DNA from: Tetraselmis striata
Lineage: Eukaryota; Chlorophyta; Chlorodendrophyceae; Chlorodendrales; Chlorodendraceae
DNA length: 64,000 nucleotides
Direction: 5' to 3'
Assembly: GCA_006384855.1 (NCBI GenBank)
Contig: VCJN01003207.1
Span: forward strand, 62,001-126,000
Made by a program: the position numbers and the translations under genes. Positions within the stretch are counted from its first letter, which is position 1. Each line of letters opens with the position of its first letter. A model generated the notes under the pieces. That model was not told where the DNA came from. It worked only from the letters and a program-made list of their open reading frames with translations, and searched no databases. Positions 297-60,927 of the stretch are shown here, piece by piece.

Positions 297-2646
297 GCGC
301 GACACGGCGGACTCTCCAAGGCGCGGCGGCTGTACAGCCAGGCCCTGGAGCTGGAGCCGGGGCGGGTGGAGTCCCTGCTGGGCCTGGGCGCCCTGGAGGT
401 CGGCGCCACCCCGCAGCCCCTCCCGCAAGTGCCTTCCATATCCTGCCTAGGGCGCTATCACAAGGATCTAGTGCTGGTTGTTGTGGAGGTTGCTGCGGTG
501 GTCTCATTTGATCCCGTGTATTATCCGCTTGCGATTGTGTCATCCCGGGGCGGCAGGCGCGTGCCGGGAACGTTCCCAAGGCGGTCGCGCTGTACGAGAA
601 GGCGCTGGAGACGGAGCCGTGCAACGTGAAGGTATGGGGGGAACCCTCGTGCCTCCTCCGCCCCTTCCTCCTTGACTCCTCGCGCTACTTTGTTTGGGGC
701 TGCTCCTGGTAGCTACTTCAGCCCAAGTGTGGGACATAGCATGGCTGACAGCGCAAGCTTTCCCTGCAGGTGCGGCACACGCTGGCGCAGCTCCATGTGC
801 AGCTGGGAGACGATGAGGTGCGCCCCGCCCCCCCCCCCGCCCCCCCCCCCCCCCAGTGCGGCCGACATGACCGGGAAGTGGATGTGTGGGTTCAGAAAAG
901 GCTGGGTGTCTTGAGCTTCGGAAGAACTCTGCTCAGCGTCCTGTGGTTGAGCGCTCACGCGGGAGGCAACTTCGCGGCAACGGCACGCTCATCACGATGG
1001 GTGGCGAGTGCGGGAGGGATGCATACTATGCGATGGCGTGATGGCGTGTGGTTGAGCGGGTGAGGGCGCGGTTGGCGGGGATGCATGCGCAGAGTGCGAG
1101 GCGGATTCTGGAGGAGCTGCTGGCCGGGGCGCCCGGGAACGCGCGCGTGCGGCGCAGCGCGGGCGAGCTGGCGCAGGGGCGCGGGGAGTTTAAGGCCGCC
1201 GCGGCGCACTACCAGGCGGGGATGGACAGCCCGGGTGCCCCCCCCCCCCCCCCCCCTTGGCCTCTGTCGCTGTCACGCCGCACCAGCCACCGTCATCAAG
1301 GGGCAGCTGGAAGGTTGCGTGGCACCTGTCTCCACGCAACCTTCCAGCCCCCCCTTCTGCCCTCCCACGCTGACTCTGCCTCCCCCCCCACCCCCCAACC
1401 ACCCCCCGCCGCGCCTTGGCGTGCACTGCATGCGGCAGGCATGGACGCTCTGCTGTGCTTTGAGGCCTATGCCGGCCTACAGGAATTCTTAGGTGCCGGC
1501 GCCCGCTCCCTGGCTCGTGTTCCTCGCACCCCCTCCCTCCCTCTGTCACCATCCACGTGCTCAGTCCTATCATTGGCCTGGCCAGGGCAGTCCTGTGCCG
1601 CCGTTCAAAGGCACCCGCAGCGCTTCACTATGTCGCAACAGCACCGCTGGAGCTGACGCAGCATGCGGCATCCCCCCTCCCCCCCCCCCCCCCCCCCCCC
1701 CACCCCCTCCCTGTCCTTCGGCGCTTTCCTGGGCGGCCAGGTGAGATCGACGAGGCGAAGGCCGTGTTCCGGGCGGGCGAGGCCCGGCTGCCAGGCGGCC
1801 GGCGGGGCGCCCCCAGCCAGCGTGGCTGCCACGCCACGGGCCGCTTCCTGCGCATGTGGGCCCTCTTTGAGCGCCGCCGCGGCAGCTTCCAGGTGCCCCC
1901 CCCCCCCCCCCCCCCCCTTACCTTCCCCCCATGAAGCTGTCCTCAGCTGCCGTGAGGCTGTCCCTCTTTCCCAGCAGTCCCGTTGGAAAGACGGTGCGCT
2001 AGGGGGGGATGGCGCAAATATCTGAGCTCATGAATGCAATCCACGGAATTGTGCAAGGTCTTGCCTCCTCACCCAATCGTTCAGTGACGGCATGCAGCCG
2101 GCTTGTGCTCAACGGCGCTGCCCTCAATGCACCTTGAATACTACGGGTCGCTCCCTCTCTCTCCCTCTAGTGCGAATCAAGTGTGGCCAGGGAAGCCTGC
2201 GTATTGGAGGCAGCGGCGGGGGAGTCACCCCCCATGGGCCCGGAGCGAGCAAGAGAGAGGGAGAGGGAGAGGGAGAGAGAGAGAGAGAGAGAGAGCGCGT
2301 ATGTGTGTGTGTGTGTGTGTGTGTGACTGTGTGTGTGGTGCCATCCGCGCCAGTGTGGCGCGTGCGTGGACTGACTGTGCGGTCGGCTGCGGCAGGCGGC
2401 GCGTGAACTCTTCGCCGAGGCGACCGCCGCGGCGCCGCGGGACGAGCGCACTTGGCTGCAGTGGGGGCTGCTGGAGCGCAAGCTGAGCGCATGGGACGAG
2501 GCGCGCCGCGTCTTCCAGAGGGGCGTCAAGGTGCTGGGTCCCACGCCTCCCCGCCTGCCCTACCTGACACCGCTGACAGTGCCCACAGCCTGCCCGCTTT
2601 CACGAAAGCCGATGTTGCCTTGGGGGGGAGGCGCAGCAGCCCCCAA

Positions 2647-2696
<50 letters not shown>

Positions 2697-4063
2697 AAGT
2701 AGCCGCCTAACACATCCTGATGCCCTTCCTGCGTGGCGCAGGTGGCGCCCTCGAATGCATACATGTGGCAATCGTATGCGGTGTCCGAGGTCCCCCCCCC
2801 CCCCCCCCCCCTCCGGGCCTGCCAGGATTCCCCCACGGCCCCGGTGCTGTCTGGCCCGTGTCCGCAGATTTCTTGCCCTGTCGCTCACCCTCCGCGCATG
2901 ACGGGGTGTGCGCCAGGCCTGGGCGGGGCACATGGACGCGGCGCGCTCCCTCTTTGAGCGCGGCATTGCCAACTGCCCGAAGAATGCGGCGCTGCGGATG
3001 GAATTCGCCCTGATGGAGGTCCCAGCCTCACCCCCTCCCCCCCCCCCCCCCGCCATCCTCGCTGGTGCCGACTAAAAGGCGGAAAGCCCTCGACCGTAAG
3101 TGTGCTTGACATTGGTTGGATGCTCGGGGTGGGATGCTGTGGGTGCGCCACAGCGCACTGCTTGCCAATCGCTCTGCTAATGCACGATCGGCCTCCATGC
3201 GTTGGTCACCGGCAGTACTTATCCGCTCGCGGTACGCACTGCATACCACCAAGGACTACGCATGCGCTGACTCAGCTGATAGCTATGCCACAGCTGAGCA
3301 TGCTACCCATTCCCGAGCCGCTGGCCACGCAGGCATGCACCGCTGCGTGCAGTGTATCGTTGTCCCCTGGTGGATTCGCTACTGTTGTCCTCGCTGCTGA
3401 GGGCCACGCGGCCCTGACGGCCTGCGGGCCAGCCTGGCCGCGCTGGCGCTGCTGATGGCGGGGCGACTGACGGGATTGGCGCTGTCGGTGCGTGCGGCTG
3501 CGCGCTCAGGGCGAGGCGGGCAACTTCGAGGAGGCGCGCGTGATCTTCCGGCGCGCCGTGGACGAGGCCGCGCCGCACCCGCCGCTCTACTCCTCCTGGG
3601 CGCACATCGAGCAGCTGGCGGGCCGGGATAGCCGCGCCGCGGAGCTGCAGGCCAAGTACAGGTGCGGCGGCCGCGACCCTGTTGCGCCTGGCGCAATTGA
3701 ATGTGTGCAGCGGCACGGCTACTTGAAGCCCCCGCACTATAAATCCACAACATCCTTGTGCCCGCCGTTGGGCCGGTCAGCTCACCTGATGCCGTTGTGT
3801 GCATCCAAGTGCAGTTGCCATGTGGCGCTGTTCAGTATTGAGTTGCTCTGCGCCGCTTTTGGTGTGTGTGTGTGTGCGTGTGTGTGCGTGTGTGCGTATT
3901 GGGGGGTGGTGGAGCAAACTCCCTCGGCGGCCGATTGCGCGCCTGACATCCCGCGCTCGTGCGCTCGTCGCGCTGCAGGGAGCAAATGGAGCAGCAGCAG
4001 CAGCGGCACCGGCAGCAGCGACAGGGCGCGCGCGGCCGCGGGGAACTCCGTCCGGAAGCTTGA
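297..4063 (+). CDS. HAT/TPR-repeat protein, 3' portion (Mbb1/HCF107-like)
   Basis: Eleven exons join in phase: 297-398, 557-631, 770-817, 1093-1234, 1439-1492, 1741-1892, 2396-2530, 2742-2789, 2917-3018, 3510-3661 and 3979-4063 (TGA at 4061). They give 364 residues; the 5' part lies before the window, and the first three bases (cag before gtgatg) may end an earlier exon. The protein is a chain of roughly 34-residue helical pairs with HAT/TPR spacing, for example ARRLYSQALELEP, ARRVFQRGVKVAPSNAYMW, ARSLFERGIANCPKN and ARVIFRRAVDEAAPHPPLY. The last exon is a basic, Gln-rich tail (REQMEQQQQRHRQQR). HAT repeats are known in RNA-processing proteins; tandem HAT arrays ending this way recall chloroplast HCF107/Mbb1, which stabilise psbB/psbH mRNAs. 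That assignment is inference, and another HAT protein (Crooked-neck/CstF type) is possible. Several introns carry long poly-C runs just after the donor. Confidence 0.75.
2251..2339. repeat. (GA)n-(GT)n microsatellite in intron
   Basis: A GA/GGGAGA tract (2251-2295) runs into a GT tract (2301-2339) inside the intron between the exons ending at 1892 and starting at 2396. Confidence 0.95.
2651..2694. repeat. (CA)22 microsatellite in intron
   Basis: A pure CA dinucleotide run in the intron between exons 2396-2530 and 2742-2789 of the HAT gene. A GT/GC-GT run of similar kind lies at 3860-3895 in the last intron. Confidence 0.95.
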
Positions 4064-4597
4064 CACATGGCCCGCTGCGCTGCAAGCACTGACTTTATTG
4101 TGTTGAATTATCGTGGCGACGGGTAGCCCGCATGCTATAGCGCCAATTATGTCAGCAAGCTTGACATCTGTCGTGTGGCTGCTGCTTTGACCATTCACTG
4201 GAACCGCACTTGCTCCACAATCCTTGCCCCCCCCCCCTCCTCCTCCTCCTCCATCCCCTCCTCCTGCTCCACTTCCGGGCCGTCTGTCGCCCTGGTTTGC
4301 CCCTGCAACATCACTGCCGGCGGAGAGGGAGAGTCCGCCACCTGCCCGGAGGTGCCGATCGCGCTGCGCTGCAGTCGCTGGCTGCCGTTTGTCCGCCTAC
4401 TACCGTCGCTGCGAATCCCCGTCCAGCAGCGCATACAGGTGTAGGCGTGCCAGTTGGGGCGCCCGCAGAGAAATGAGTCAATCAACACCGTCATCGCGCA
4501 GCACTAGAGCCCCGCCGCTCAACCGGTACTCGTACGAGCATTTTCGCCCCCTGGACAGTAGAACTAGCGGCACAAATGGAGTTTGATATTCGAAATG

Positions 4598-4712
4598 TTT
4601 TACAACTTTGTTCCTGCATAGTCTTTGAGACTAAACTTCTAAGGCCAGCTGTCTACAGCACGGCACGAACCCGCATAGGGTCCACCAATGCGGGAAGCCC
4701 TCGGAAGGCCAG
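4598..4712 (+). repeat. Dispersed repeat family B, copy 1
   Basis: Shares with 34841-34970 (+) and 41436-41525 (-) an order of blocks: ACAACTTTGT, TTAGTCTTTGA, GGCCAGCTGTCT, CGAACCCGCATAGGGTCCAC, then a block ending GCCCTCxGAAGGCCAG. No coding capacity or clear ends seen. It abuts a copy of dispersed repeat family A at 4715. Confidence 0.7.
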
Positions 4713-4714
4713 GG

Positions 4715-4970
4715 GACCAGTGAAACCCTTTCAGCGTCTCTACGTCTCTGCCACGGCCTTTGCGGCAGCAATCCAGATACGGAAAGCCCTGCGCATGCGT
4801 GGCGATCCGTGATTATAGTCATCGAGCAAATTGTCGCGAGGCAGTCCGCAAGTTTAATTGGAGGCCAGTGATGGAATCTCCCCGCCCGTTCTGGGATCGC
4901 CGTCATCTTAAACACTGACTGCATTAAAAATATCCGTCACTGACCTGGAAGGTCTGCCCTACCTGTCCGC
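4715..4970 (+). repeat. Dispersed repeat family A, long copy
   Basis: Begins with the family core CCAGTGAAACCC and continues for about 250 bp with blocks shared with 14997-15236: CAGCGTCTCTACG, GGAAAGCCCTG, ATCGAGCAAATTG, GGAGGCCAGTGATGGAAT, and GGTCTGCCCTACC. Other copies of the core lie at 11038-11100 (-), 12549-12599 (+), 14745-14868 (-), 14993-15109 (+), 30890-30950 (+) and 50185-50245 (+). The family is non-coding and probably a mobile element end or non-autonomous element. Confidence 0.7.
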
Positions 4971-5117
4971 CGTGCGACCAGTAGTATTTGAAACGGCACC
5001 TAGAATAAGACTGCGAGAAGTATGTGTCGCAGGCTCTATGGCAGCGACCGCGTAGAATGTATATTGGTTGCTATTATACTCATATGGTGATCGGCGGCAT
5101 GATGTTGCTGTACATCC

Positions 5118-5368
5118 CTTGTCCCCTCGGTTGAGCGGTCGTCTCGTATGCGAGAGGTCCCGGGATCGATTCCTGGCCGATGCATTTCGGCAATATCGTC
5201 CCGGCGTGTCCTGGGTTTGCCCGGTTGATGCATGAGCCCTTTGGGGATCGAATGAGGCAATGGTCTACGGGCTATGCCAGACCTACGACTGCAGTTGGCG
5301 CAAGAGGTCAAGTGCTGGGGCGGCTTCGTCCGGTGTCCCTGGGCGAACTATTATTTTACTTTTATGAT
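5118..5368 (+). mobile_element. tRNA-derived SINE
   Basis: The head has a pol III A box (CGGTTGAGCGG, 5128-5138) and a B box (GGATCGATTCC, 5163-5173, one mismatch to the consensus) 35 bp apart. The T arm can still fold (CCGGG / CCTGG around a 7-nt loop) and the anticodon stem reads TCTCG / CGAGA with a shortened loop. A non-tRNA body follows and ends near 5348 with an AT-rich tail. The body's last 69 bp recur at 50601-50669 in the opposite orientation, again followed by an A/T tail. Head, body and tail make this a SINE and not a tRNA gene. No target duplication was found. Confidence 0.7.
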
Positions 5369-32195: not shown

Positions 32196-33232
32196 CGAGC
32201 AGGCCGGAGGGGTCGACCGGAATGGCGGATGCAACGATGAAGTGATGATTGCGCCACCCAATGCAAGAGCAGCTGATGTGCTCCAACCGCTCTCGATGCT
32301 CGCAGGAGATCCGCTATCGCGAGGACGCGGAGGGGCGTATGGTGGCCAGCGTGCAGGGTGGCGCGCACATGGGCGCGCTTGTCCAGGCAGGCGAGGGCAA
32401 CGGGTGGGGGGTACCCGTGGGCACGCATCCTGCCCCCGGGTTTGGCCTCCTGACGCAGGCATGCCCCGTTGCCCGCATCCACCACGCCTGAGCTCCGGTC
32501 ATTTGCCTCTCCCCGGCGCCATGGAGCATGGCGGGGCGCGCAGCCTTGCCTTCGTTACCCATCGACACCGCACACACCCATCTGAATCCGGGGTGGCGAT
32601 GAGTGCAGGGCGGGGTGGGCTACCTCTCGCGCCAGGAGGGGCTCACACTGGACCACATCCTGTCGATCGAGGTGGCCGTTCCGTCTGGAGAGGTGAGAGC
32701 GCCTGCACAGCCCTGGCCACGGCAGTGCATGACGAGGAACGTGGAGGATCTGGGAGACGCTGACAGAGGGGAGGGAGCAGGAAGGGGCGGTGTGGAGTGT
32801 TTGTTTCATTGGCTCGGGTACCAGTGGCAAGGCGTGCTGAGCCTGTGTTTGTGCGCGCGTGTCGGCCTGCACCAGGTGTTGACCCTCTCGGAGGAAAGCA
32901 CGGGCAGGGAGGCGGACCTCTGGTGGGCAGTCAGGTGCCCCCCCCCCCTTCCCCACCTTTGTCCTCTTGCATACGAGTCCAAGTGACTCCTAGCCGTTGG
33001 CCAGCACAGCATAGCATGGCGACGGTCAAGGGCGCGCTGAGGGCATACTGCTGGCGCATCACAGGGGCGCTGCGCCCTTCTTCGGGGTCGTCACTGGCGC
33101 CGAGCTGCAGGCGGTGAACATCTCGGCAGGTGCGCCGCCGCCGCCGCTGCCCCATCATTCAGGCCGTGGACGTGCACCGCGGCGCTGTGGCGCTTGTGGG
33201 GGTGCCGTTGCATGCGCGCGTGTGTGCGTGTG

Positions 33233-33295
<63 letters not shown>

Positions 33296-36200
33296 GGGGG
33301 GGGGGGGGGGGGGGCACATAGATGGCTGGGCGCCATGCTGGAGGGGTGTTGATCGACCTGGCACGCGGTGGCCGGCAGGGATATACGTGCACGCAGCGGC
33401 GTACGAGCTCACGGAGGCTCGGCTTGCCACCTACCTTTCCGCCTCCCCCAAGCTGCCCCGCGGCGTCAGCGTCCACTGTCTCGTCGGCCGCGCCGAGGCG
33501 CGCGACGCGGAGATCACGCTGTACGCCACCGTGTGGCCGCCCGGCGAAGACGCGGCCGAGGTGGCGGCGGCGGCCCTTGCCCCGTACGGAGAGCCCTTCT
33601 TCGTAGGCTACGACGGAGTGTACCCATACAGCCAGGTACCCCCCCCCCCCCCCCCCCCGCGCTCTCCTCCCCTTCACCGCTTCACCTCCAGGGACGGCCG
33701 CTGCGCCCGCCCAGCCCACCAGATCCACCCAGCCGTCAGCGAGCCCCTGGCTTGCCAGGTGTTGTCTTTTATCATAGCACAGCTTCATCCCCCCTGGGCA
33801 CTGGCATGATCTGGCACACCCCCTCTCCCGCTGCCTCCTAAGCGACGAAGCAACAGCGGCAGCGAGCAGCAGCACCGGTGCGGACATGCATGGCGAGGCT
33901 CTCTCCACGCACAGGCACACAGCGGAATGACAGCCGATGTCCCTGCCGGCACCCTCACCCGCCCCCACCTTCGAATGGCCCATGTTTTTGGTTGTTGCTT
34001 CTAGCGGACACACCTCTGGCAAAGCTGATCCCGCGCCCAAGTCGCCTGATCAGCTGGGTGCGCCCTCGGTGTTGGTGGCAGACTCCGCCGCTGGCGCCGC
34101 TGGTGCAGCCGGCACCGCGGGGGGGCGCCCCCGCGCGCGGCCACCTGCACAGCGGGCGCTGCCTGGACCGCCTTGGCGAGACCCGCGTGTTTGGCGGCAC
34201 CAGCGGCCTGTTCATGCGGCCGGTGAGCGACGCAACGGCGGCGGCGGCGGCGCTGCTGGGCGTGTTCCAGTGGTGCCCCTCCCGGATGTGCGGCATCGAC
34301 TTCCAGCAGGCGGGCGGGGCCGTGGGTACTGTGCCCCTCCCCCCCCCCCCCCCCCCCCCCCCTCTTCCTTTGGCACCGACCTGCTGCCTGCACTGCCTTG
34401 AGATGTATAGTGTTGTTCCAGAGTGAGTCCTCGTAATGCGTAGCGCACAGCTCAAAGCTCAGTTCTGCTCAGGGTTTGCGCGCGCGAGGTGACACAAAAA
34501 TCTAGTTTACGCGGGGAAGAGCTGGCTCAAAGATATTCACCGCGTCAATTAGGCCACGGGCCACAATTTGGGCCAGTAGGGGAAAAATCATCCGCGGTTT
34601 TCATTCCTGAAACAACTCTATAGAGTGACCTCTAGTGCAGGGAGGCCGCCGCACCAAGAGGTGTGACCGAGGCATGTACGTGCGGGGCAGCTCACACCTT
34701 GGGTACATCGCCCGAATCCTTCGCATGTACCGGCAAACAGGAGCTTATGTACATCCATCCGGGGAGCAGCACCTGCCTGCATTCCAGCGATCCAGCGATC
34801 ATTCAAATCCACATTATTGAGATCCGTTGTTTTGTGCGATTTGTTGCAACTTTGTCCCCGCTTAGTCTTTGATGCTAAGCAGGCCAGCTGTCTTACGGCC
34901 TGGCGACGCGAACCTGCATAGAGTCCACTATTGGAAGCGCGCAGCGGGCAGCCCTCTGAAGGCCAGTGAATCCACATAGTTTCCCACAATGACGGCAGAG
35001 CTCGTGTCGCTTGTGCTGGGGAGGTGGGGGGGGGGGGGGGGTGCGTGCTCGTGCGTTGTGCGGTGCCAAGCAGGCTGCGGGGGCGCATGACGTCCGTTTG
35101 CATTGCTTTGAACATGCGGTGACTGCTCGCGGCAGAGCAGCCACTGCGCGGGTGTGGGGTAAGGTATCGGCGTTCCCACTCTCCTCAGCGACGCTGCGGT
35201 TGCGGCTGTGCTGAGGCTACCCGCCTATAGTCTCTTTGGCGGGCAAGGGGCAGCCTAGGCAGCCCCTGAACTCAATTCCGTCTCCTGTATGGCAAACGGT
35301 GCACCAAGTCTGCCGATGAGCGTGGGAGAGGGCCTGTTCCCGAAATTGAAATTGCACGGGGGTACAACATGCTATTTTGCGGCTCTCTGCCGCCCAGACT
35401 GAGTTGCTCTTAGGGCCTGCTATCTCTAACTCCGACGGGAAACACAATGTGGTATTACAGCCCAAGCTACCGGCCTGCCCCCTGTGGTGCCCAGCCCCCC
35501 CTCCGTCCTGCTGGGGCAGTTCCTCCTGGAACGGCAACATCCCCGGGAACAGCGATGTTGAGCCTTCGCAAGGGGGGGGGGGGCAGTGCATGGCGGGCAG
35601 GCTGTTTCCTTCCGGCCCATCTTGACTCTAGATGACCCGCCGTGCTCCCAACCCCTGGCTGTGCTCCGTTGGCAGGCGACGTGCCGCCGTCCGAGATGGC
35701 GTTTGGGCAGCGCAGCTGGGAGTGGAACGTAAGTCACGCCCGGCCTCGTCCCTCTCCGCCTGCGCGCCATCACGCCCGCATGCGGTGTCTGCCGTGCTGT
35801 GCAGCGTGTGATGGGATGCCGCATGTTTGCATGTGTGTGTGTGGGGGGTGGGGTGGGGGGGGGGGCAGGTGGTGTTCCACGGCAACTGGCTGGAGGGCAC
35901 CAGCGACGGCAGTTTGGAAAGCGAATGGATCCGGCGGGCGGCGCGGGCTGCCATCGCTGTCCCGGGCTTGGTGAGCGGCTACTACGCGGTGGACATCGTG
36001 AGAGCCCCCTCCACTCCCTTCCCGGCCTTCTCTCCATTTGTCACCACAGTGGTCACGCATGCGCCCCGGGTCCATCACAGCAAAGCGTCGCGGTTCCCAT
36101 GACTTCACCGGCCGCCACCGGCAGCCGTGGATTCCGCCGACCAATCGCCGCCGCGCGGGCATCCCCTCCCGGATGGCGCCTGGTGATGGCGGCGGCGGTT

Positions 36201-36556
36201 AAGCTCAGCTCTGCTTGCGCAGGGTAACAACGGACCGGAGGGCGCGCCTGGTCTGTACTCGGAGTTTGCTCGGTGCGTGGTCCCGAATACGCCCAGCAGG
36301 CCCACGGTGCAGCTGGCGACAGTATCCATGTTGCCCCAAGTTGTTTGGATGCACACTGTTGACTACCTGGAGCTTGAGTGTGTCCTTGTGTGCTTGGTCC
36401 TGTACGCCACAAGGGGGGGGCTTGCTTTGATTGCGAGTTTAAAATGTGTGGGCACATGTGGCAACTTGGCTTTATATAACAAAACTGTAATTCTGACATA
36501 TTAATTAGTCAAAAAATACATTTGTATATGTGTTTATTTACAGAAATGAATATATG

Positions 36557-36596
<40 letters not shown>

Positions 36597-36987
36597 TAGA
36601 GAGAGAGAGCGAGAGAGAGGGATGGGGTCGCGGTATCACTGCGACTCATCTGAAATCCAGCTCGAGCCTTGCGGGGATGTGATAAGCACCTCAAACTTCA
36701 TCCGCATACGTTTGCCGCGGTAGCACGTCATGCCATCGACGCTTTGATGCACGGCAGGACTGCGGGGTCGCTCCCCCCAGCTTCTCCACGGCGTTGTTTA
36801 TGAGGCATTGCCCGCTAGCGTGCAAGACTTGCTGAGGGTGCGCATGTGTCTGCGTCACAGGGCCTACGGCGAGAGCGGAGGGGCGCCGCACGTCGCACGC
36901 CTGTGCCGGCTGAAGAAGCAGGTCGACCCGGAGAACGTGCTCGCCAGGCACTTTCCGCTCTGCCCGCCTGTCCGCACACCAGCATGA
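31548..36987 (+). CDS. Secreted berberine-bridge-type FAD-linked oxidase
   Basis: Twelve exons join in phase to 553 residues: 31548-31942, 32081-32126, 32306-32458, 32609-32692, 32876-32934, 33065-33129, 33379-33635, 34082-34325, 35676-35728, 35869-35997, 36223-36272, 36861-36987. The N-terminus is a signal peptide (ALLLLAFLFASLATAAA). The FAD-binding PCMH domain shows RRPLCVVRPSTAAHVAALLR, RGGGHTLR, VPVGTHPAPGFGLLTQ/GGVGYLSRQEGLTLDHI and LWWAVRGAAPFFGVVT. The C-terminal BBE segment is AYGESGGAPHVARLCRLKKQ followed by VDPENVLARHF. Such flavoenzymes oxidise alcohols, sugars or alkaloids with O2 and release H2O2, here probably at the cell wall. I do not see the Cys that would give bicovalent FAD, while the His of GGGHTLR is the likely single attachment site. 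Intron 3 appears to have a GC donor. Intron 8 to exon 9 (34326-35675) is long and holds repeats. Confidence 0.85.
33220..33314. repeat. (GT)n followed by a 20-nt G run in intron
   Basis: A long GT tract (33220-33292) and an uninterrupted G run (33295-33314) in the intron before exon 33379 of the FAD oxidase gene; the 3' splice site lies about 64 bp downstream. Confidence 0.95.
34841..34970 (+). repeat. Dispersed repeat family B, copy 2
   Basis: Inside intron 8 of the FAD oxidase gene. Shares the ordered blocks of the copy at 4598-4712, including GGCCAGCTGTCTTACGGCC and GAACCTGCATAGAGTCCACTA. Confidence 0.7.
36561..36620. repeat. (TA)n-(GA)n microsatellite in intron
   Basis: TA dinucleotide run followed by a GA run in the last intron of the FAD oxidase gene. 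Confidence 0.9.
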
Positions 36988-39900
36988 CCGCGCCCGCGGT
37001 GAAGGTAGCGTCACATCGCATGTTCTAACCGGAGTATCTGATAGTGCGACATGCAAAGCGGCTACTCGGCACCGCCCAAGCCACGTCTCTCTTTGTTTGG
37101 GTCGGCATCTAGCTTCCACTTGTGACTCGCCCTCGGCGGCCATCAACCAATCGAACGCCCTCCCCCCCCCCCTCGCCCCCCCTCGCCCCCGCCCCCCGGC
37201 GGCCGGGTCTCAACTGCTGCGCACTCCACTGCTGCTGCTGCTGTAATGTGTAGGGGGAAAAGTATGTCGCTTAATTCTGTGGCGAGTCTTTGTCTGAGCG
37301 GCAGAGTTCTCAGCGCAATGATATTCCAATTCTGCAATAGCTATTCACCGAGTGGTCGCCCCGCAAAAAACAATTACACTGACCAAGGAAGCCACCCGGA
37401 ATTTGTGTGGGCTGCTGTATGCGGTGTGAACCCAGTAGCGACACCACATCCCGCGCCGCTTTGCATGCGCGCTGCAGCGGGCGCCGCACCGCCACTTATT
37501 CTTATGGTGGCTGTATCTCGTCACCACTGACCGCTGCCGTGCGGTAGTGGCTGGGCGAGCATCAACAGTTTGCCTCTAGCCACCGCTGAGCTTGAGACAC
37601 GGTCCGCACAGTTCTATCCAATTTCACATTCACATAGATATTATTATTGTGTGATAGCTTTGTTGTAACATGTTGTTGTTTGCGCTAACTTGTGTATATG
37701 ACATTATGATGTTGTTTATATGACGTTTGTGTCATGTAGTTGTCATGAGTATAAGCAACAACTACTGCTATTTCGACTATTCGGCTGTTTTGGCTATCAT
37801 TTCACTACATTTCCTAGTAGGACGTTGTACTACCGCGTAGTAATAATCGAAACAACATTACTCCGATATCAAAATGTCATTCAGCTTATTACCGCCTTCA
37901 AGTGCGCTGTCATGTCAGCAGCGCATCGCACAGTCACGTTGTGTCACTGTGACCATAAGTGCTACTCACCGACATATCTATCGTACGCATAAAACCTGGT
38001 CCACGTCCCTCCCCACCATCCACAGCACCCCTAAACCCTTATTATATCTACGAGGAGCCGTATGCATATCTGCGCTGTGGGATGGCTGGCACATCGTGAT
38101 GCCCGGCCATGCCTGTTCCATGTCGAGAGAGGTAGATAGGTTGTCGTCGCTCGTGCGGCTTGCAACCCACCCCGGCTCGAGATGGATGCGCCCCGTCTCG
38201 ATCAATTGCCTGTCGCGGTAACGGGTGAACTTCCTAGGGACGCCGTCGTACCATGCGGGCAGCTGGTTGGCCATACCGGGCGAGGCGAGGAACCGTGGAT
38301 GGTGCGTAACGCTGGTTGCAGGTGGCGGGTGGGCGCTGGTTGAGTACATGGGTTTGGGTTCGGTAGCTGGGAGAAGCCGACACCTTTTGCGGCACCGACA
38401 AGCCCATCATCGCGCGACTGAGCACGGAGTAGCTCACAACCAGGCCTTCCTCATTTGCACTCACATGCCGAGTAGCGAAATTGTGTACAAACAGCACACG
38501 CTGCTGAGTGAGGTTTATAGCTTGCTTAATTATTATCACATACTTAGTGGGGGCGACGTACTGGATAATGCCACCAGAGCGCGCGGACGGCATCAGTATT
38601 CAGGGCGCCGCCGCCCCAGGCTTTACGGGTGGGCTAAAGTTCAGCACCTTTCAGGTTCAGCGCCATGAGGGTGCTGTGGCAGCTGCGCTTCCCTTCCGCT
38701 GAGAACATTGGCCATGCTAGGATGTGGATGTTATTTTCTTATCTGTGGGGCGACAGTGGCTCCCATGTGTGGCGACAAGAAGGATGAGACGAACTACTGC
38801 TGATGATGCCTCGTGTCGGATGGGTACGCGAAATCTATGTGAGCAGAGGCCTTACCAACCCGTCCTGTGCGGGTCCCGGCGCAAGCTGAGGAGTGAGGGA
38901 GGGAGCGTGAAGCACGGAGAGTGGCTGGTGCCATGCCCCGGGGCGCCGCCGCACGCCAATAGGCAGCCACAGCGGCGCACGCTGTGCTAGTGCGCACCGT
39001 CAATGAGGTTTGATATCTGATAAGGTACTAAGGCCAACTCTACCTACTATCTTGTAGTACTACACATACAGTAGTGTACTGGCACTGATGACAACACAAT
39101 CGTTTTCATAAGCACGGCGTCACGTCGGCTTGCCGCCCACCACCCGTTCGTTCCTGTTGTTGGTTTTGGAGCGGCTTAAGCGACGGGTTTATCAATTCTC
39201 TCTGCCTGTATCCGATAGATGAAGAGTAGTCGAGCAGTAATGGTACAAGGTAGAAAGATGGCGCGTTGCTGCGTCCTCATCACCTCGGGATCTAGCGACT
39301 AGTCGCTGGCTGCGACGTCACTGCTCCGAAACCATGACAAAATCATAAGCGCACATGCATGAATAGAGATAGAGAGGGGGGAGAAGCCTTACATGGAGTT
39401 TGAGGGCATCACGCCAACCCAGTTGGGTAAACAACTAAGCCCTCTGATTATATATCTATACGATCTACCTAATATTCATCCGATTGTGTAGTCACAAAAA
39501 ATATACACATATATAAATATATATATATAAATAAACATATAAATATATAGATATCTATATCTATATCTATATGTATCTGATGATTTATGGCCAGCCGAGT
39601 CAGCCTGACTGCTAGCTCATCCTGCTCCCTTGGGCGACTGTGCATTACGCACGGAAACACATGATGACATACGCGGGGTGGGAAGCTCGTGGTAGGGCGG
39701 TAGTGCTTGCTATTCAGGCCGGCGGCAGCACTGCCGAGCAGCATCAAGCCAGCATTTACTACACCACTGCGGTAGCTGCTATTTGGCCCCGCAAGAGGAA
39801 ATTGGCGTGCGCGCATCAGGATAGCTGGAATATTTCAAGTCGCCGTACCTACATCTCGAAAACTCAAATGTATACAGAAGTCGGATATCACCGAGCTCGC

Positions 39901-40204
39901 ACAGCGGGATGATGCATACATGCGACACGGCAAAAAAGTTCAGCCACCACAGGCGGAAGGACTGGTGCAGCCCCCTATGCCTTCGGGCTGATTTCTGCAA
40001 TCAGGAGAGGGCGTCATTACAGCGTTTTTTTCAAAAGACACACAAACGGTTTCAATTTCGAGCGCAGGTAACATTCCACCTGATAAGCGGGCCTCAATTT
40101 CTTCTTTATATCTTGGGAGTTGAGCGCGTGTAAAAATACAAATGTGCAGAAACGGATCAGAGTCGCGAGGCGCACAGGCGGGCTGACTGCTGTCATTTGG
40201 GAAG
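36988..40204. other. Intergenic, 3.2 kb, no gene recognised
   Basis: C-rich at 37160-37200; AT-rich at 37620-37900 and at 39480-39580 (TATA-type repeat with TATATC units). A 123-codon minus frame at 37978-38349 and a plus frame ending near 38701 show no known motifs. I see no RNA gene. Confidence 0.45.
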
Positions 40205-42780: not shown

Positions 42781-42806
42781 CCATCAATGCCCCTCATTCA
42801 CCCCCG

Positions 42807-42895
42807 ATTGAAGGGTTTTAGGTTAATTAGGTTTTGGGAAAGTTAAAGCCCCAAACCCTACGATCATAAAGCCCAAGACCCTAAGCCCTAAAAAT
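42807..42895. repeat. Degenerate telomere-like motifs, head to head
   Basis: A cluster of TTTAGG/GGGTTTTAGG-like words on the left half and CCCTAA/CCCAAACCCTA-like words on the right half, between the LRR gene's stop and the next gene. The plant/green-algal telomere unit is TTTAGGG; the copies here are imperfect and few. Confidence 0.45.
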
Positions 42896-45800
42896 CAAAA
42901 CATGCACGCCTTGTGCCGGTAGCTGTCCCAGAGGCTGCTCACCCTCCGCTCCATACTTGCGCCCTCTGTGCCTCTTGACTGCCATGAAGACGAACACAGC
43001 CAGCACGCCGGCCGCCAGCACAGCCGCCACCGCTGCTATCCAGGCGATGGTGGACGGACTGGTCCTGGGCGGCGGCTCAGATGTCGGCGCAGTCTCAGCC
43101 TGCGGCTCCGGCTGCTGCCCAGGCCGGGGAGGGAGGCTCCTGTGATCACCACAGTGGGCATTGGGGAGCGCGATGCACGGGCAGGCAGAGGTGAAGGATG
43201 CACACCTCGCATCATGAGACACAGAGGTACAGGCGCCGATGCAGTGATAAACAAGTATATGATGAATCCGAGCTCGCACAGCCTGTAAAAAGGTCAACAC
43301 TAGGGCGGAGTCGAGTTGTCCCTTATCAAGTTGTCAAGTGCTATCAAATTATATAAGGGGTCATATCAAATGTCCCCTACCAAGTTATCACGTTGTCCCT
43401 TATCAAGTTGTCAAGTGTATCAAGTTATATAAGGGTCACATCAAATGTTCCCTATCAAGTTATGAAGTGTATCAAGTTCTATAAGGAATTATATCAAGTT
43501 GTCCCTTAGAAAGTTTCAATTTACCCCTTATCAAGTCTTCAAGTATACATCAAGTCACATAAGGGTTGTATCAACTGTCCCTATCTGTAGGGCGCGCGCA
43601 CATCAAACATCAGCGCCACATCACAATATGCCAATATGGGTCTCATCGGTGCGTCGGCACCCGTACGCCAACAGAGTGCCGCGCTGTAGCCGGTCTCGAA
43701 TAACGGCCCACTGCGCTAACAATGGGACGGTTTATACCGACCTTTGGGATATCTCGGGGCCAAGCAGTGGCAGTGGGATTGCGCTTTACTTTGTGCCAGG
43801 GGGGGGGGGGGGGGGATACCATGACGCAGGGGGCGCTGAATTCTCCAGCCGCAGGCTGGTCTCCGTGGCGTCCCTGGACAAAAAGCCACATGCGTCCGCA
43901 TTTCAGTGCCGTGCGGGGGCCGAACGCTCCACGAGCGGCCACGTAGGCATGCGGAGTCTGGTTGGGGCTGTGCCGGGACGTACAGAGACAACGATGGAAA
44001 CTTGAGGAAGCTGGCTGGGATGTCTCCGGTCAGGTTGTTCCCGCTCAAGGTCCTGCACATCCGCGCGACCCGGGAGCTTACTGCCCACAGCACAAACCCA
44101 AGCTGCCAAGCCATGGTGTGCGCGGGATTGAGTAGGGAGTAGGCGAGAGGATGCTGCGTGGCACGGAGGCATGCGGCCTGGGGCTGGGGGCAGGCATGGC
44201 ACAGAATTGGGCGAGGGGCTACATACAGCGAGCGCAGGGAAATCATGGCGCTCCACTCGGTAGGGATTGTGCCCGTCAGGTTGTTGTCGCCCAGATTGCT
44301 GTGCAAAGGGAGAAGCATGCGGCGGGCGGTGGCAGTGAGAGACACGACAGGGCGCTGCGCCAGACAGACAGAGTAGGTAGTGGTGCGGATATGGGAGACG
44401 CTCAAAAATATGGCGGCTCACATCCGCTGCAGGCGCGTCAGAGCTGCCCACGCATGTCCCGGCAGGGTGCCGTTGAAATGGTTGGCATCCAGGCTGACCT
44501 CAGTCAGCGTTGAGATATTGCCGAGCGCCACCGGCAGCGCTCCGGATAAGGCGTTCATGCTCAGATCCCTGCGCCAACAGCACACAAGCAGCTCATATGC
44601 CTGCGCATCCGTGGAGACAGGGGTGCAGATACGAACACGAGCATCGGCACAGCATGGCCGCGGTCACGCACAGCTCCCGCAGCCGTGGCATGAGCCCCCA
44701 TGCGGGAGGTACTTGACCGGCAATCCGGTTTCCGCGCAGGTTCCTGCAGCGCCACAGCTGGGTGTGAATGCCGTGCAGTGTTGTGGGAGGATTGCGGCAC
44801 TTTTCATTTGCGAGTCCAAAGGAGGCAGCGTGCGTCACGGGGGGAGGGGGGGGGGGGGGGGGGGGGGGCTGGGAGCTGAGTATCGTGCTTGTCAAGGGTG
44901 ATGCAAGGGCGGTGTGCGCACAGCTGCTCCAGCATACTCAGCAGCCCCCATTCAGGGGGCAGCGGGCCAGTCAGCTGGTTCTCGCGCAGCTGCAGGCGCT
45001 CCACGTTGCGCATGCCGGCCCAACTGGCAGGCATGGTCCCGGTCAGGTTGTTGGAGTCCATGCGGAGCTGCTCCATTGCTAGGAGTGCCGACCATGACGC
45101 GGGAAGGGCGCCTGAGAGCTCGTTGCTATGCAGGTCGACATACTTGAGGCCTGCATTGGCGCCCCACTGTGAGGGGATGGGCCCGCTGAAGCTGTTGTCA
45201 CTCAAGTCCCTGTGGGCGACAGGCAGCGAATCTCTCACCACTGTGTCAGTTGAGCAGGACAGTGGCAGTGTCGTATCCGTTGGCTGTCAAGGTGGTGTGG
45301 AGGGTCCTCCAAGAGGGACCTCACAAGTCAATGCTGTCCTGATGGATGCCAAGGATGGACCATGATACCGGCAATGTGCCGGTCATGCGGTTCCGCTGAA
45401 GATACAGGTCTGCCATGTAGTCCAGCTTGGAGAATGCCTCTGGCAGGGGCCCTGTCAGATTCATGTAGGCCAAGTCCCTGCAGGGTCGGCGGCATGTAAG
45501 TCAGCAGGGTCTCAGACGCCAGGCATGCGGCTCCAGCCGCTAGAGGTGGGTACGGGGGGGTGTAAACTCACAGAAGCTCCTGACACGCCAGGGTAGGCGA
45601 ATATCGTACTGGTCACCAAGCACATGACGGCGTGATTATGGTGATACACGGCATCATGATACACGGCATCATGAGCGCTAGGGCTATGCCACGCCGTTCG
45701 CAATGACACGCTGTTTGCAAGAGCCTCTGGCAGCCAAGTTCCCCGGAGGCTCGACTTGCATCCCTGCATAGGTGCCTTGTAAGGTGATGCCGACTTCCGG

Positions 45801-54500: not shown

Positions 54501-55348
54501 CAGCCCAACCCTGGACGAAACGTTTGCGTGGCTGCATCACGTACCATATTTACGTACCACCAACCCCGGTAACGGTTGCGGTAATAAATCGCGTGGTATA
54601 AGACGACTCCCAAAACCCTAAACTCGCTACTGATAATGATAGCGCACGTTTTCCTCGCGCACATCAAGCTCTAGTGTATCATACTCGCTATGTATCAGAC
54701 GCTCACATCGAGGTCCATTGTATGATACATCGCACATTTTCCGCAATACCAATGAAATTACCGTTTGGATAGCGACTACCTGTATTTGTCGTTGCCATCA
54801 TGACCCATCCCATGACGCCACGTGGATCCCGCGCGCAGGCGGGAAGATCGACACGTTCCATGTCCGCTCGCCTGCCCTGCTGGTGACGAAGTTGCAAATT
54901 GCGTTACTGCCCCGCCCCTGTAGAGGAATTAATCCGCCGTATGCTTCACAGCTGTTCCAAATTGTATGCTACAGTCCGTTGGACGAGCTCAAGCCGCAGT
55001 CAGGGCTGCGTCCTGTCGGCCATCCCCATCGCCTTCGCCACTGCCTCGACTCCGCCCTCCTCGCTGTACGCAACGCACCGGACAGCGGACGGCGAGCAGG
55101 TACGTCCAGCGGGTATCGCACCTACCGCCTCAACCTGCTCGTCAGCATTGAGGATCCAACTTCCAGTCGCTCCTAATCATGAAGGCGCATCCTGCTGGGA
55201 CTCTTCATCCCGCGCGCGCGCCCCTAGCCTGTGGCTATTCCTGCTAGGACTGGAACACACAATTCCGCGGTGGTGAACCCGTGTGTCTGACCAGCCCCAC
55301 CTTGCCCATGGGTGACACCGTGACAGGTGTGCCATCATGAGCCGCGGT
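54501..55348. other. Upstream region of the zinc-finger gene; possible minus-strand exon
   Basis: A minus-strand frame at about 55165-55005 reads LNADEQVEAVGAIPAG ... YSEEGGVEAVAKAMGMADRT and looks protein-like, but competing plus frames exist and no splice model was built. It may be an exon of a divergent gene. Confidence 0.3.
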
Positions 55349-56598
55349 ATGGCTTGTAGCATGGGAGCGTCGCGGTGTGGCAGCCCGCTGCAGATTGGTG
55401 TGAGCGCAGGGCCTGGATGGAGTGGCAAGGTGGGTTGCCAGGCAGACAGCTAGGAACTCGTGAAACCTCCTGCCACGCTACTCCGATTTCAACGATGGGT
55501 TGGGGGGGGGGGGGGGGGGGGAGGTGGCGCAGCGCAGCAGTGTGGCGGTGGCCCAGGAGAGTGGGGGTTAGGCTGACCGCTGCTCCTTGACGTGCCGCCC
55601 AGGTTGGACCTGCTTTGCCGCTGCGCAGCAAGACCGGAACAGCCTACAGACCTTGTCCTCTCAATCCTAATGGAAGCAGGTATGTGTGTGTGCTCTCCTC
55701 TCCCTTGTTTTGGGTTCGCAGCCTGCAACAGGGTCACATGCCGTGAGCACATGCACTGTGACTATGATCTAATTGAGAGATGACGCTTCCTCTGTCACGG
55801 CTGCAGGGGGCTGGTGTGCACGAGAGCCGCACCCGAAATCGTGAATGTGACCGGGACCGACACCTCATACCAGAATCTGATTGTGTTTGGCAGTGTCGCA
55901 GCTGCGATTGTTGTTTCGCTTGCGGCTGCATTCAAGGTATGGCAGTCCTGCGGCACGATGTGTTGGATGTATCCATGTGGCCTGCTCACAACCCGCTGGT
56001 GGGAATTGACAGAGTGCCGGAATGTGTTCTGTGCTAGGGAGAGCCGGGGCTGTGTGAAGGCTGTGAAGGAACAGGTAGGCCACATAAGGCAGCATGCCCA
56101 CCCTGACGGCATGGCTGTATGCACTGCATCATTTCGCTGTCCGCTGAGCCGCCCCGGTGGCTTTGCTGTAGGTGGTGCCAAGTGCTTTGGCTGTGAGGGT
56201 ACTGGCCGGCTGGAGACGGCACGCGATACAGGCGAGGTATTCGGCTCTGTCCTGCCTGTCTGGCGCATGTAAGGGGCTTCAGGCTGTCTCTGATGTTAAT
56301 TGCTGTGGCAGGGGAAGCGGGACGTTGTCGGCAGGACTGTGGACAGATACAAATGCAATGTGTGCGGCGGCTCAGGTGGCTGCCGTTGCCTGTTGATTGC
56401 ACATTGCTATTAGTATCCTCCTCACCTGCCGCTCCCGCGCTCCCGTGCTCTTGCCCTGACATTGCTGTCCCTGTACACCGATGAGCAAGCCCAGCCAGGT
56501 GTGCAATTGTCTGATGCTGCGGCCAATGTGCTGTTGTGTGTCCAGGCCTGCTGGCCTGCAAGCGATGCAACGGCTCTGGCCTTTCGAACACCATGTGA
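55349..56598 (+). CDS. Plastid DnaJ-type zinc-finger membrane protein (LQY1-like)
   Basis: Seven exons join in phase to 168 residues: 55349-55429, 55603-55679, 55807-55936, 56038-56074, 56172-56236, 56312-56375, 56546-56598. The first 60 residues are a basic/Ser-rich transit-peptide-like region (SKTGTAYRPCPLNPNGS). One membrane segment follows (LIVFGSVAAAIVVSLAAAF), then four CxxCxGxG motifs: CEGCEGTG, CFGCEGTG, CNVCGGSG and CKRCNGSG. A lone DnaJ Cys-rich domain with one membrane helix and no J domain is the architecture of plant LQY1, a thylakoid disulfide-isomerase-type protein of about 150 residues that helps repair photosystem II; BSD2-type chaperones share the zinc finger but lack the helix. 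The 37-nt exon 4, which encodes the first motif, is easy to miss. The start could lie further upstream. Intron 1 has a 21-nt G run. Confidence 0.8.
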
Positions 56599-57507
56599 GC
56601 GCCATAGCTGGCAGCTCAACAGCTCTCATATAGCAGGGATACAGTTGACATATGGGCACGTCCTCAGGCGCTCAGCACAGCTGCGCCTGAATATAATCAT
56701 GTCTGTGTTTTGGCTTGAGTCTGCCAGAAACGCACCACGATATAACATGATGATGTTTTGGAAATTTGAGATCTTTCAAGGGAGCATGAGGCAGCCCAGA
56801 CAACGGCACCTATGTAATTCATCCACAATCGAATCAGTTTTCCATTAACATAACTCGAAATGTGTCTCAAGTTCGAGCGTTTATGTGGTGGTATGTGTGC
56901 TAGCCCATCATACACCAAGGATTGCAATTCATCTCCGTCATGGATTAATTCCTGTAACTACAGTATTTATGAGAAGGCACTGCCTGCTGCGATGGGAAGG
57001 ACCTGAAACCGCCGCGGATGACATGTGAGGAATGGATTACAGGTAGCGCTATTATAGCGACGACTGGTCTCTATTATAGCGATGACTAAAACGACGGAAT
57101 AATCCAAGGATGCAGCACCCCGGCCGCTTCTGTTTTCTAGTCATCTGCGTTTCATCTGCGCCCCACTCCAGCAGCGCGCGCAGCCACCCGTCGGTCGCTA
57201 AATTGCATTCCTAATTTACTACTACCAGGAGTAAGTTCTACTCCTGCTACTACTCCTGCCACTACTGGTACCAGTGCTGACATGATGACTTCAGTCATCA
57301 CTTCACGGTGATGACTCCGCATGCGCGCCGCCCGCAGTGGTATGGGTTGCAACGCCAACTCCGCAAGACTCATGACAGGTAGTAGATGGAGTAGACGCTC
57401 ATTCCCTCGTGTGCTACCAGGGGTTACCCCTGGTGCTACAGGCAGCTTCACTTGATTTGCCCGTAATGTTGTACCTAGCGGTAGTCGCTAGTTGGTACAG
57501 GTAGTTG
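56599..57507. other. Intergenic, nothing recognised
   Basis: 3' flank of the zinc-finger gene and 5' flank of the copia element. 57220-57290 has repeated CTACTACTCCTG-like words. No gene recognised. Confidence 0.5.
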
Positions 57508-59207: not shown

Positions 59208-59212
59208 AGTTG

Positions 59213-59724: not shown

Positions 59725-60927
59725 ATGCTTGCCGCCCTCGCACGGAGCACGGCGGCCGCCAGCGGCCTGCGGGCGCTGGTGCCCGCGGCGGGCGTGTCCT
59801 CCGCGCGGATGATGTCCGGCTTCGGCGACCGAGCTCTGCAAGGCATCAAGGGTATATCAGAGAAGGAGATGGCCGTGGAGGTGCGACTCACCCCGCCACG
59901 CGCGACTCACGAAGGCCAAATAAGGCTGGACGGAGGTTCTTACGGCGGGACACAGGGCTTTCCGGATGCCTCTTGGCCTGCACAGCCCCAGCCCATGTTC
60001 CCAGAAAATAGGGTTAGAACCGTCGCCCGCGCCGCGCCCGCCAATGTTCGGGCATCCGCCAGTCCCCCGATCTGGCTGCGCTGCCGCAGTCCCGGATCCA
60101 TGTGCAACCATCGCCGCCCTCCCGCTCTCCTGGACCCTGATTCCCGCTTCCGTTTCGCCGACCATGGCTAACCTTTTGTGGCGAGGGTGGGGCTATCTCG
60201 TGGGGTGGGGCGAGGATGCCTGCTTATGTGTGTAAATATCTGCTGGTGGCTTGTGGGCGCGGTGTGGGTGGCCAAAGCGCGTGAATGCCCCCCCCATCCG
60301 GATCTCGTGCTGCCTACTAGCTGTTCCTGCTGCGGTGCTCCGGCCTTGCGCGGTGACTCGTTGGTTCGCCTGATCCATTTGCAAGGCAATGTTACAAATC
60401 TGAGCCCCCCCCCCCCCCCCCCCCCCATCCTTACCACAATTTCTGCTATGGCCAGAACGCCTACTTCAACAAGGAGGACGAGAGGCTTCTGCGCAAGATT
60501 CTGAAGAAAGTGAAGACTGTGTCGGACGTGACGGACGAGCATGCCGCGGTGGGCATCGCCGCCCAGGAGATGTCTTCTCTGAAGGTGCTCGCGCTGCCAC
60601 TCTCTGCGCCACAGCCCTGCATGCCGTACCCATCCTCCCCACTGCCCCTCGCCTCTCTGTATCCTATGCCCAGAACGATGTTCGCAAAGTCTCACTTTCT
60701 TTGCTACATGGGGTCACGCAGGCGATCGTCGACAAGTACAACGTGTCCCAGGAGGACCTCAATGGTGCGCGCCTCCCCCAAGCTTCGACCGTCCCTGCTG
60801 CTGCTGCTGTCGCTGCTTGCAACCCTCTCCCCGCTCTCCTTGCCCCCCATTCGCATTTGCCTGACCTGTGGCTGCTCCTCCCTGTGCCACAGCCCTCATT
60901 GAGTGGAGGCACCACCACGAGCACTAG
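59725..60927 (+). CDS. Small mitochondrial IF1-like protein
   Basis: Four exons join in phase to 120 residues: 59725-59880, 60456-60584, 60722-60764, 60893-60927 (TAG at 60925). The N-terminus is a typical mitochondrial presequence (MLAALARSTAAASGLRALVP, no acidic residues, Arg spaced on a helix, ending near SSARMMSG). The mature part is helical and charged: GISEKEMAVENAYFNKEDER then LLRKILKKVKTV, and the C-terminus is AIVDKYNVSQEDLNALIEWR followed by HHHEH. The SEKEMAVEN...F.K.....L.K segment resembles plant IF1-like proteins (LSEEERAAENVF.K...), which inhibit mitochondrial F1-ATPase hydrolysis. The C-terminal half does not match IF1 as I know it, so this may be another small respiratory-complex protein. 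Intron 1 contains a 20-nt C run near its 3' end. Confidence 0.65.

What the first reader, a model, noticed from the sequence alone, without database searches (positions are those of the whole stretch)
818..3060. Long poly-C runs placed directly behind 5' splice sites
Seen: in the HAT gene, introns starting at 818, 1235, 1893, 2790 and 3019 carry runs of 10-22 C beginning 2-22 nt after the predicted donor (gtg/gtc then C run). The FAD oxidase gene shows the same at 32935, 33636 and 34326. In minus-strand genes (LRR, coiled-coil) the runs are also C on the sense strand, though further inside the intron. Exceptions: G runs on the sense strand in the introns starting at 4, 32127 and 55430, C runs near acceptors at 1673 and 60406, and no runs in the bestrophin and HET-like genes. 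Inference: the runs may be a splicing signal, an R-loop or i-motif element, or the track of an insertion process aimed at donors.
Basis: partly seen in the sequence, partly recalled or inferred. Interest (0 to 1): 0.75.

Follow-up and report, generated by a model that had tools for sequence, protein, structure and literature searches.

The report
Poly-C tracts clustered behind splice donors
In a green-alga genome packed with about 100,000 long runs of C or G, the runs inside introns are mostly C on the coding strand and pile up just after the start of introns, apparently because intron starts are C-rich and short C runs grow there; whether they affect splicing is still open.

Summary
All five donors named in the HAT gene (818, 1235, 1893, 2790, 3019) fit a ten-exon model open in one frame, with C tracts starting at +3 to +19. 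Intronic tracts were sense-C 65-71 versus sense-G 21 over six runs; within 10 nt of a donor 9-10 versus 0. Repositioning tracts within their introns gives 1.35 expected against 11 observed. The other contig alone gives 17 C versus 2 G within 45 nt.

Two layers explain most of it. The genome holds 100,602 C/G tracts of 12 or more; in the sample their lengths peak near 20 and they are rare in exons; 17 of 21 tract-less paralogous copies carry a C run of 5-8. And introns, also those without tracts, are C-rich and G-poor at +7 to +50, so seeds there are mostly C. C tracts per seed are also about twofold higher there (p=0.02).

Insertion aimed at donors is not supported. A splicing-enhancer role is possible but untested. 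New variant of a known kind: stranded intronic repeats plus dense G/C tracts.

The parts
818..1092 (+). HAT-gene intron; sense C11 (828-838) and C15 (840-854), first tract at +11
1235..1740 (+). HAT-gene intron; sense C19 at +4 (1238-1256), C23 (1679-1701) on the acceptor side
1893..2395 (+). HAT-gene intron; sense C22 at +4 (1896-1917); a TPR_14 match runs across this junction
2790..2916 (+). HAT-gene intron; sense C20 at +3 (2792-2811)
3019..3509 (+). HAT-gene intron; sense C15 at +19 (3037-3051)
32938..32948 (+). C11 right behind a proposed AGGTG donor (32935) of the FAD-like gene; donor not called by my gene finder
33636..34081 (+). intron of the FAD-like gene; sense C20 at +4 (33639-33658)
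34322..35868 (+). predicted intron (donor 34322 or 34326 uncertain); sense C24 at 34339-34362; three sense-G tracts deeper inside
43140..44421 (-). intron of the same minus-strand gene; sense C17 deep inside
59881..60455 (+). predicted intron with a sense C22 (60405-60426) close to the acceptor
33130..33378 (+). counter-example: predicted intron with a sense G20 tract (33295-33314)
55100..56799 (+). counter-example: predicted intron with a sense G20 tract at 55502

Best explanation
Two layers. (1) Mutation: short C/G runs of about 5-8 expand in place, most simply by replication slippage, towards tracts near 20 nt. They persist in introns and between genes and are removed from exons. (2) Seed bias: introns have a sense-strand C-rich, G-poor zone at +7 to +50, also when they carry no tract there. 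Seeds in that zone are therefore mostly C and tracts accumulate close behind donors, with about a twofold further excess per seed. SHOWN: the genome-wide tract count; in a 264 kb sample the length mode, exon depletion, blind strand and position bias, the C-rich zone in tract-less introns, and short C runs in paralogous copies. INFERRED: slippage as the expansion step, the direction of growth, and that the C-rich zone itself is kept because it helps the donor be recognised (pyrimidine-binding factors or a G-poor setting), so that C tracts are tolerated or mildly favoured there.
For: Density: 100,602 C/G tracts of 12 or more in 224 Mb. In 264 kb there are 166 C/G runs of 8 or more and 12 A/T runs; C/G lengths are bimodal with a second mode at about 18-24, maximum 31. 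Exons: 3 tracts against 172 seeds of 5-7 nt. Strand and position, tracts hidden, six runs: introns C 65-71 versus G 21; within 45 nt of a donor 19-20 versus 3; within 10 nt 9-10 versus 0. Contig C40 alone: 51 versus 15 in introns, 17 versus 2 within 45 nt, 8 versus 0 within 10 nt. AGGT[GA][ACG] words: C tract within 60 nt at 12 of 49 predicted donors and 6 of 390 intergenic copies; G tract at 2 of 49 and 8 of 390. Zone: 69 introns with no tract in their first 120 nt have C 39.6% and G 24.5% at +7..+50, falling to 31.6% and 27.0% at +51..+100. Seeds: donor zone 37 C versus 11 G, mid-intron 109 versus 60, intergenic 122 versus 149. Tracts per seed mid-intron are alike for C and G (36/109, 17/60). 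Homology: of five tract-bearing VPS35 introns, the alignment to PDB 7bln_A has no gap at four junctions, two of them with a two-residue gap close by, and is ragged at the fifth. Expansion: 17 of 21 tract-less paralogous copies have a C run of 5-8, e.g. a C14 tract against C5 in 9 of 12 copies of one repeat.
Against: The same AGGT words lying inside sense introns but not called as donors also have a C tract within 60 nt at 10 of 63 (G at 2), not far below the 12 of 49 at donors; some may be missed donors, but part of the signal is intron-wide. The per-seed excess in the donor zone (21/37 against 125/440, p=0.02) shows composition alone does not explain everything; the acceptor zone (12/22) is p=0.09. 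Paralogues can equally be read as tract decay; 4 of 21 copies lack a run of 5, and in one more the C5 is displaced. Native tracts do not significantly free the donor in folding (0.394 unpaired against 0.352 with random filler, p=0.06; 0.345 with a G swap, p=0.19), which weakens the 'G-poor setting' version. Donors with a C tract are not weaker than others (p=0.78), against simple compensation. All intron counts rest on predicted genes from one unannotated assembly; no RNA-seq and no related genome were available.
Confidence: 0.6

Rival explanations
1. The tracts are functional splicing enhancers: poly-C just behind the donor recruits a poly-C or pyrimidine binding protein that stabilises U1, a C version of U-rich elements downstream of donors, and selection favours long tracts.
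For: Positional peak within 10 nt (11 against 1.35 expected); twofold more C tracts per seed in the donor zone (p=0.02); in 87 introns without a tract in their first 60 nt weaker donors have more downstream C (rho -0.31, p=0.0035) and less G (rho +0.36 with strength, p=0.0006); C-rich motifs act as intronic enhancers in human minigenes, and hnRNP K is cited there as acting on a C-rich motif near a chicken donor (PMC2481429, passages).
Against: Most predicted introns have no tract in the zone (19 of 109 have a C tract in the first 60 nt); donors with C tracts are not weaker (p=0.78); the correlation may be shaped by how the gene finder trades donor score against sequence and was one of several tests; about half of the donor-zone excess follows from the number of short seeds.
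Confidence: 0.22
2. Transcription-linked asymmetric slippage: expansion is more likely when C is on the non-template strand, so any transcribed non-coding DNA gains sense-C tracts.
For: Mid-intron tracts are also biased, 36 C versus 17 G.
Against: Tracts per seed mid-intron are alike for the two strands (36/109, 17/60), so the bias sits in the seeds; tracts within 600 nt of predicted genes show only 32 C versus 23 G (a tract between two genes counts twice); it predicts no peak at donors.
Confidence: 0.1
3. The tracts mark intron gain or an insertion process aimed at donors (introner-like).
For: Tracts begin at +3 to +5 in several introns (W 1235, 1893, 2790, 33636; C40 4259, 4934), as a terminal feature of an element might.
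Against: All-against-all comparison of the predicted introns found two pairs sharing repeat fragments and no family; tracts are also common deep in introns and between genes; 17 of 21 tract-less paralogous copies carry a C run of 5-8.
Confidence: 0.04
4. Assembly or gene-model artefact.
For: The gene models are predictions without RNA evidence, and my finder missed three short HAT exons; homopolymers are error-prone in sequencing.
Against: Errors would not avoid exons (3 tracts against 172 seeds) or prefer one strand; the HAT and VPS35 junctions are supported by homology; the gene finder could not see tract identity. Exact tract lengths may still be wrong.
Confidence: 0.04

Closest known systems
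G/C tracts of Caenorhabditis guarded by DOG-1 (PMC2211496; abstract, Results part 1 of 2 and Discussion read)
   Same: Homopolymer C/G tracts of 18-32 nt, over-represented, mostly intronic or intergenic, little position conservation between species
   Different: 396 tracts of 18 or more in about 100 Mb there, against 100,602 of 12 or more in 224 Mb here (different length cut-offs); that paper reports no distinct orientation pattern along chromosomes; no donor clustering in the parts read
Stranded simple repeats in introns, e.g. Daphnia pulex (PMC3152781; passages read)
   Same: Pyrimidine repeats on the sense strand of introns exceed their reverse complements (poly-T, CT, CTT)
   Different: There the motifs are T-rich; here poly-C, peaking close behind donors
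C-rich intronic splicing enhancers, hnRNP K / alpha-CP (PMC2481429; passages read)
   Same: C-rich motifs in introns that promote splicing, one cited case near a donor
   Different: Short motifs in individual vertebrate introns; here long tracts in many predicted introns with no functional test
U-rich elements downstream of donors bound by TIA-1/Nam8 (recalled, no call)
   Same: Pyrimidine-rich zone right behind the donor
   Different: U instead of C, and no homopolymer expansion
Introner elements (PMC3879977 and PMC9860276; search listings with start of abstract only)
   Same: Recurrent sequence character at many introns, known in green algae
   Different: No shared intron sequence family found in this sample

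Membership tests
Dense genomic G/C tracts (Caenorhabditis type) | C/G homopolymers far above chance, mostly outside coding sequence | tested here: met
   100,602 tracts of 12 or more; in the sample 3 exonic tracts against 172 exonic seeds
Dense genomic G/C tracts (Caenorhabditis type) | Protected by a DOG-1/FANCJ helicase | not tested
   no search made for the helicase; needs a mutant
Stranded intronic simple repeats | One strand of a repeat exceeds its reverse complement in introns but not between genes | tested here: met
   introns 65-71 C versus 21 G over six runs; intergenic 36 and 36
C-rich intronic splicing enhancer | Position near splice sites | tested here: met
   donor side p=5e-5; acceptor side not significant, p=0.10
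C-rich intronic splicing enhancer | Mutation of the motif lowers splicing | not testable with these tools
   needs reporter introns
C-rich intronic splicing enhancer | Associated with weak splice sites | tested here: inconclusive
   tract-bearing donors not weaker (p=0.78), but introns without a tract show more C behind weaker donors (rho -0.31)
Introner elements | Introns with a shared sequence at many unrelated places | tested here: not met
   all-against-all of predicted introns in 264 kb: two pairs with repeat fragments, no family; a family rare in this sample could be missed

The most novel reading that the evidence does not exclude
Thousands of introns in this alga carry a length-variable poly-C enhancer right behind the donor: a C-based counterpart of the U-rich downstream element, whose slippage makes splicing efficiency a fast-mutating, tunable trait across the genome.
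Probability: 0.2. Interest if true: 0.8.

Novelty: new variant of a known kind. Interest (0 to 1): 0.5.

Why it matters
It gives a natural experiment with many replicates: C homopolymers, expected to be unstable, sit within a few bases of splice donors in many genes, in one orientation. If they matter for splicing, slippage would keep changing intron retention genome-wide and would link mutation rate to gene regulation directly. If they do not matter, they show that a donor can work with C at +4 to +6 and little but C behind it, which limits what the donor consensus must contain. Either way, gene finders trained on other algae are likely to mishandle such introns.

Tried and rejected
Direct counts of donor-like words beside tracts mislead if taken raw. 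GGTSC12 has 3,511 matches (reversed word 1,075), but GGTSG12 has 8,462 (reversed word 4,031), which taken alone goes against the claim. A hand calculation from the flank frequencies gives about 1,570 expected for GGTSC12 (2.2-fold excess), 8,660 for GGTSG12 (no excess), 980 for the reversed C word and 6,740 for the reversed G word; the last is 1.7 times what was seen, so the method is rough. I therefore lean on up/down asymmetry. Variable-gap patterns are counted once per sliding start on one strand, so only the strand anchored at the short motif was used.

Acceptors by pattern: TGCAGG downstream of C12 599, reversed word 147; but TGCAGG upstream of C12 is 1,067, probably because exon ends before donors also read TGCAGG. 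The test is confounded and not used. The matching G12 search did not complete.

U1: two loci over the cut-off, both with an ordinary 5' end, so no poly-G partner for the tracts there. Donor accessibility by folding: small, not significant. Blind test on 29 of the 30 GGTSC12 loci (L016 was dropped by the script, which did not find the match where expected; L024 and L025 overlap): 7 were donors in most of five runs, 8 lay mostly inside a sense intron, 12 mostly in no gene, 2 were split, none was mostly antisense. In one search two of the 25 rows pair L024 with L025, which overlap in the genome, so they are one site; I dropped them, and counted one reciprocal pair once.
Full report
WHAT WAS CHECKED. 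The window is G000:C2591:62001-126000 of a 224.1 Mb, 2,903-contig assembly. On another contig a VPS35 protein, a relative of flagellar protein FAP107 (PDB 6u42) and an LCIB-type protein fit a chlorophyte alga; the species is not known to me. The named runs are present at the stated places. In the HAT gene they start +3, +4, +4, +11 and +19 from the named donors. The ten-exon model with all five donors is open in one frame and matches TPR/HAT families far better than the model my gene finder made by skipping three short exons (TPR_14 97.2 versus 59.6 bits; Suppressor of forked 108.5 versus 51.9 bits).

A BLIND TEST. I wrote a two-strand hidden Markov gene finder with GT-AG introns, trained without supervision on the window plus 200 kb of contig C40, with homopolymer runs of 8 or more masked. 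It converged on 114 complete introns, median 301 bp, donor AG|GTG[AC]GC and acceptor GCAG|G. For the test each C or G run of 8 or more was replaced by random filler, so the finder could not know which base it was (six runs). Intronic tracts came out sense-C 65-71 and sense-G 21; within 10 nt of a donor 9-10 versus 0; within 45 nt 19-20 versus 3; within 50 nt of an acceptor 11-12 versus 1; exons held 3-10 in all and intergenic DNA 70-73. Repositioning each tract at random in its own intron (labels of the first run, where tracts that begin before the donor are also counted) gives 7.35 expected against 21 observed C tracts within 45 nt and 1.35 against 11 within 10 nt (both p=5e-5, the floor of 20,000 shuffles). 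For G tracts it is 2.04 against 3 and 0.38 against 0. The acceptor side is not significant (8.2 against 12, p=0.10). The finder missed the HAT donors at 818, 2790 and 3019, so their tracts count as deep ones here.

A WORD CONTROL. AGGT[GA][ACG] words with a C tract within 60 nt downstream: predicted donors 12 of 49 (G 2), intergenic 6 of 390 (G 8), exon but not donor 0 of 135 (G 0), antisense of genes 1 of 248 (G 16), sense intron but not donor 10 of 63 (G 2). The contrast with intergenic and exonic words is strong; the contrast with other words in sense introns is weak, so part of the effect is intron-wide or those words include missed donors.

WHOLE-GENOME COUNTS. C/G tracts of 12 or more number 100,602. 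Matches anchored at the motif, one strand each: AGGTGMG within 30 nt upstream of C12 997, downstream 104; upstream of G12 506, downstream 280. The same letters reversed (GMGTGGA): upstream of C12 667 (control), downstream 347 (control), upstream of G12 409 (control), downstream 252 (control). The up/down ratio is 9.6 for the donor word at C tracts and 1.6 to 1.9 for the other three. Against the claim: the C/G ratio upstream is only 2.0 for the donor word and 1.6 for the reversed word, and raw counts of GGTSG12 (8,462) exceed GGTSC12 (3,511), which flank composition can explain by a rough hand calculation.

HOMOLOGY AT THE JUNCTIONS. In VPS35 (C40 236-5670, minus strand) I compared five tract-bearing introns with the alignment to PDB 7bln_A. 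It reads through 4259-4638 (C19 at +5) and 3868-4072 (C21 by the acceptor) without a nearby gap; through 2201-2654 (C15 at +10) and 1465-1614 (C18 at +17) without a gap at the junction but with a two-residue gap a few residues upstream; at 4934-5241 (C tracts at both ends, acceptor AAG) the alignment is ragged. In the FAP107 relative the junction at 183811-184030 (C28 at +35) is read through.

WHERE THE BIAS COMES FROM. With tracts left out, the sense strand at +7..+50 is C 39.0%, G 25.2%. In 69 introns with no tract in the first 120 nt it is C 39.6%, G 24.5%, and at +51..+100 C 31.6%, G 27.0%. Short runs of 5-7 follow: donor zone 37 C and 11 G, mid-intron 109 and 60, intergenic 122 and 149. 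Tracts per seed: mid-intron 36/109 and 17/60, intergenic 36/122 and 36/149, donor zone C 21/37 and G 3/11. The strand bias is therefore largely present in the seeds; a further twofold excess of C tracts per seed in the donor zone has p=0.02, and in the acceptor zone (12/22) p=0.09. Exons have 172 seeds and 3 tracts. Sense-G tracts in introns are not scarcer than between genes (21 in 55 kb of introns, against 36 per orientation in 136 kb), so the bias is a gain of C rather than a purge of G.

HOW TRACTS ARISE. Flanks of tracts were compared with all held sequence (25 rows). After removing two rows that are one site seen in overlapping loci, one pair of copies has tracts in both (C23 and C22) and seven tract sites have 21 tract-less copies. 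The longest C run at the site is 5-8 in 17 of the 21 (in one of them displaced within other sequence), 4 in two, 3 in one and 2 in one. One repeat family supplies 12 of the 21: its C14 site reads C5 in 9 copies. This fits growth in place from seeds, or decay back to them; it does not fit insertion of a ready-made tract into an empty site. Among predicted introns, all-against-all comparison found two pairs sharing repeat fragments and no family.

DOES IT DO ANYTHING. Not shown. Among 87 introns without a tract in their first 60 nt, weaker donors have more C (rho -0.31, p=0.0035) and less G (rho +0.36 with strength, p=0.0006) behind them; but the gene finder's own trade-offs could contribute, several tests were made, and tract-bearing donors are not weaker (19 against 87, p=0.78). 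Folding of 22 donors gives 0.394 unpaired with the native tract, 0.345 with a G tract (p=0.19), 0.352 with random sequence (p=0.06), 0.399 with T, 0.425 with A, and 0.357 in 92 donors without tracts. U1 has a standard 5' end in both loci found.

KNOWN OR NEW. Ten answered literature searches (one search failed) listed no paper whose title or abstract start concerns poly-C behind donors in an alga. Only the top rows were shown (2 to 15 of up to 1,014 papers; one search found none), and the library holds only open-licence papers. In a review of microalgal splicing (PMC12702839) none of six terms tried, including C-rich and poly-C, occurs. A Chlamydomonas intron study (PMC7419008, passages) reports no significant motif among its enhancing introns. 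A survey of short repeats around gene bodies (PMC11686069, passages) does not contain 'splice' or 'poly-C'. The nearest precedents are Caenorhabditis G/C tracts (PMC2211496), stranded intronic repeats in Daphnia (PMC3152781, passages) and vertebrate C-rich intronic enhancers (PMC2481429, passages). Each covers one part; the combination of very dense C/G tracts, sense-C orientation and a peak directly behind donors is the new variant.

Noticed in passing
whole genome G000: 100,602 C/G homopolymers of 12 or more (one per about 2.2 kb), while A/T runs of 8 or more are nearly absent in the sample (12 in 264 kb, none in the window).
   Followed up: partly
window, about 2260-2335, 2648-2693 and 33230-33293: Long AG, GT and CA dinucleotide repeats in or near the same introns as the C tracts.
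   Followed up: no
contig C40, about 34490-44800 (L034-L035): A dispersed repeat family in which one copy (tract at 44052, minus strand) has C14 where 9 of 12 others have C5; a good place to study tract birth.
   Followed up: partly
contig C40, 165549-166520 and 168234-169205 (L047-L048): Two predicted proteins of about 323 aa with the same start that look like a transposase with a helix-turn-helix (impression from sequence, no family search).
   Followed up: no
window 57598-57705 and 59104-59211: 108 bp at 99% identity, a recent local duplication.
   Followed up: no
contig C40, 49406-58414 and 58579-68582: Two adjacent predicted proteins of about 3,000 aa each with 0 and 4 predicted introns.
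   Followed up: no
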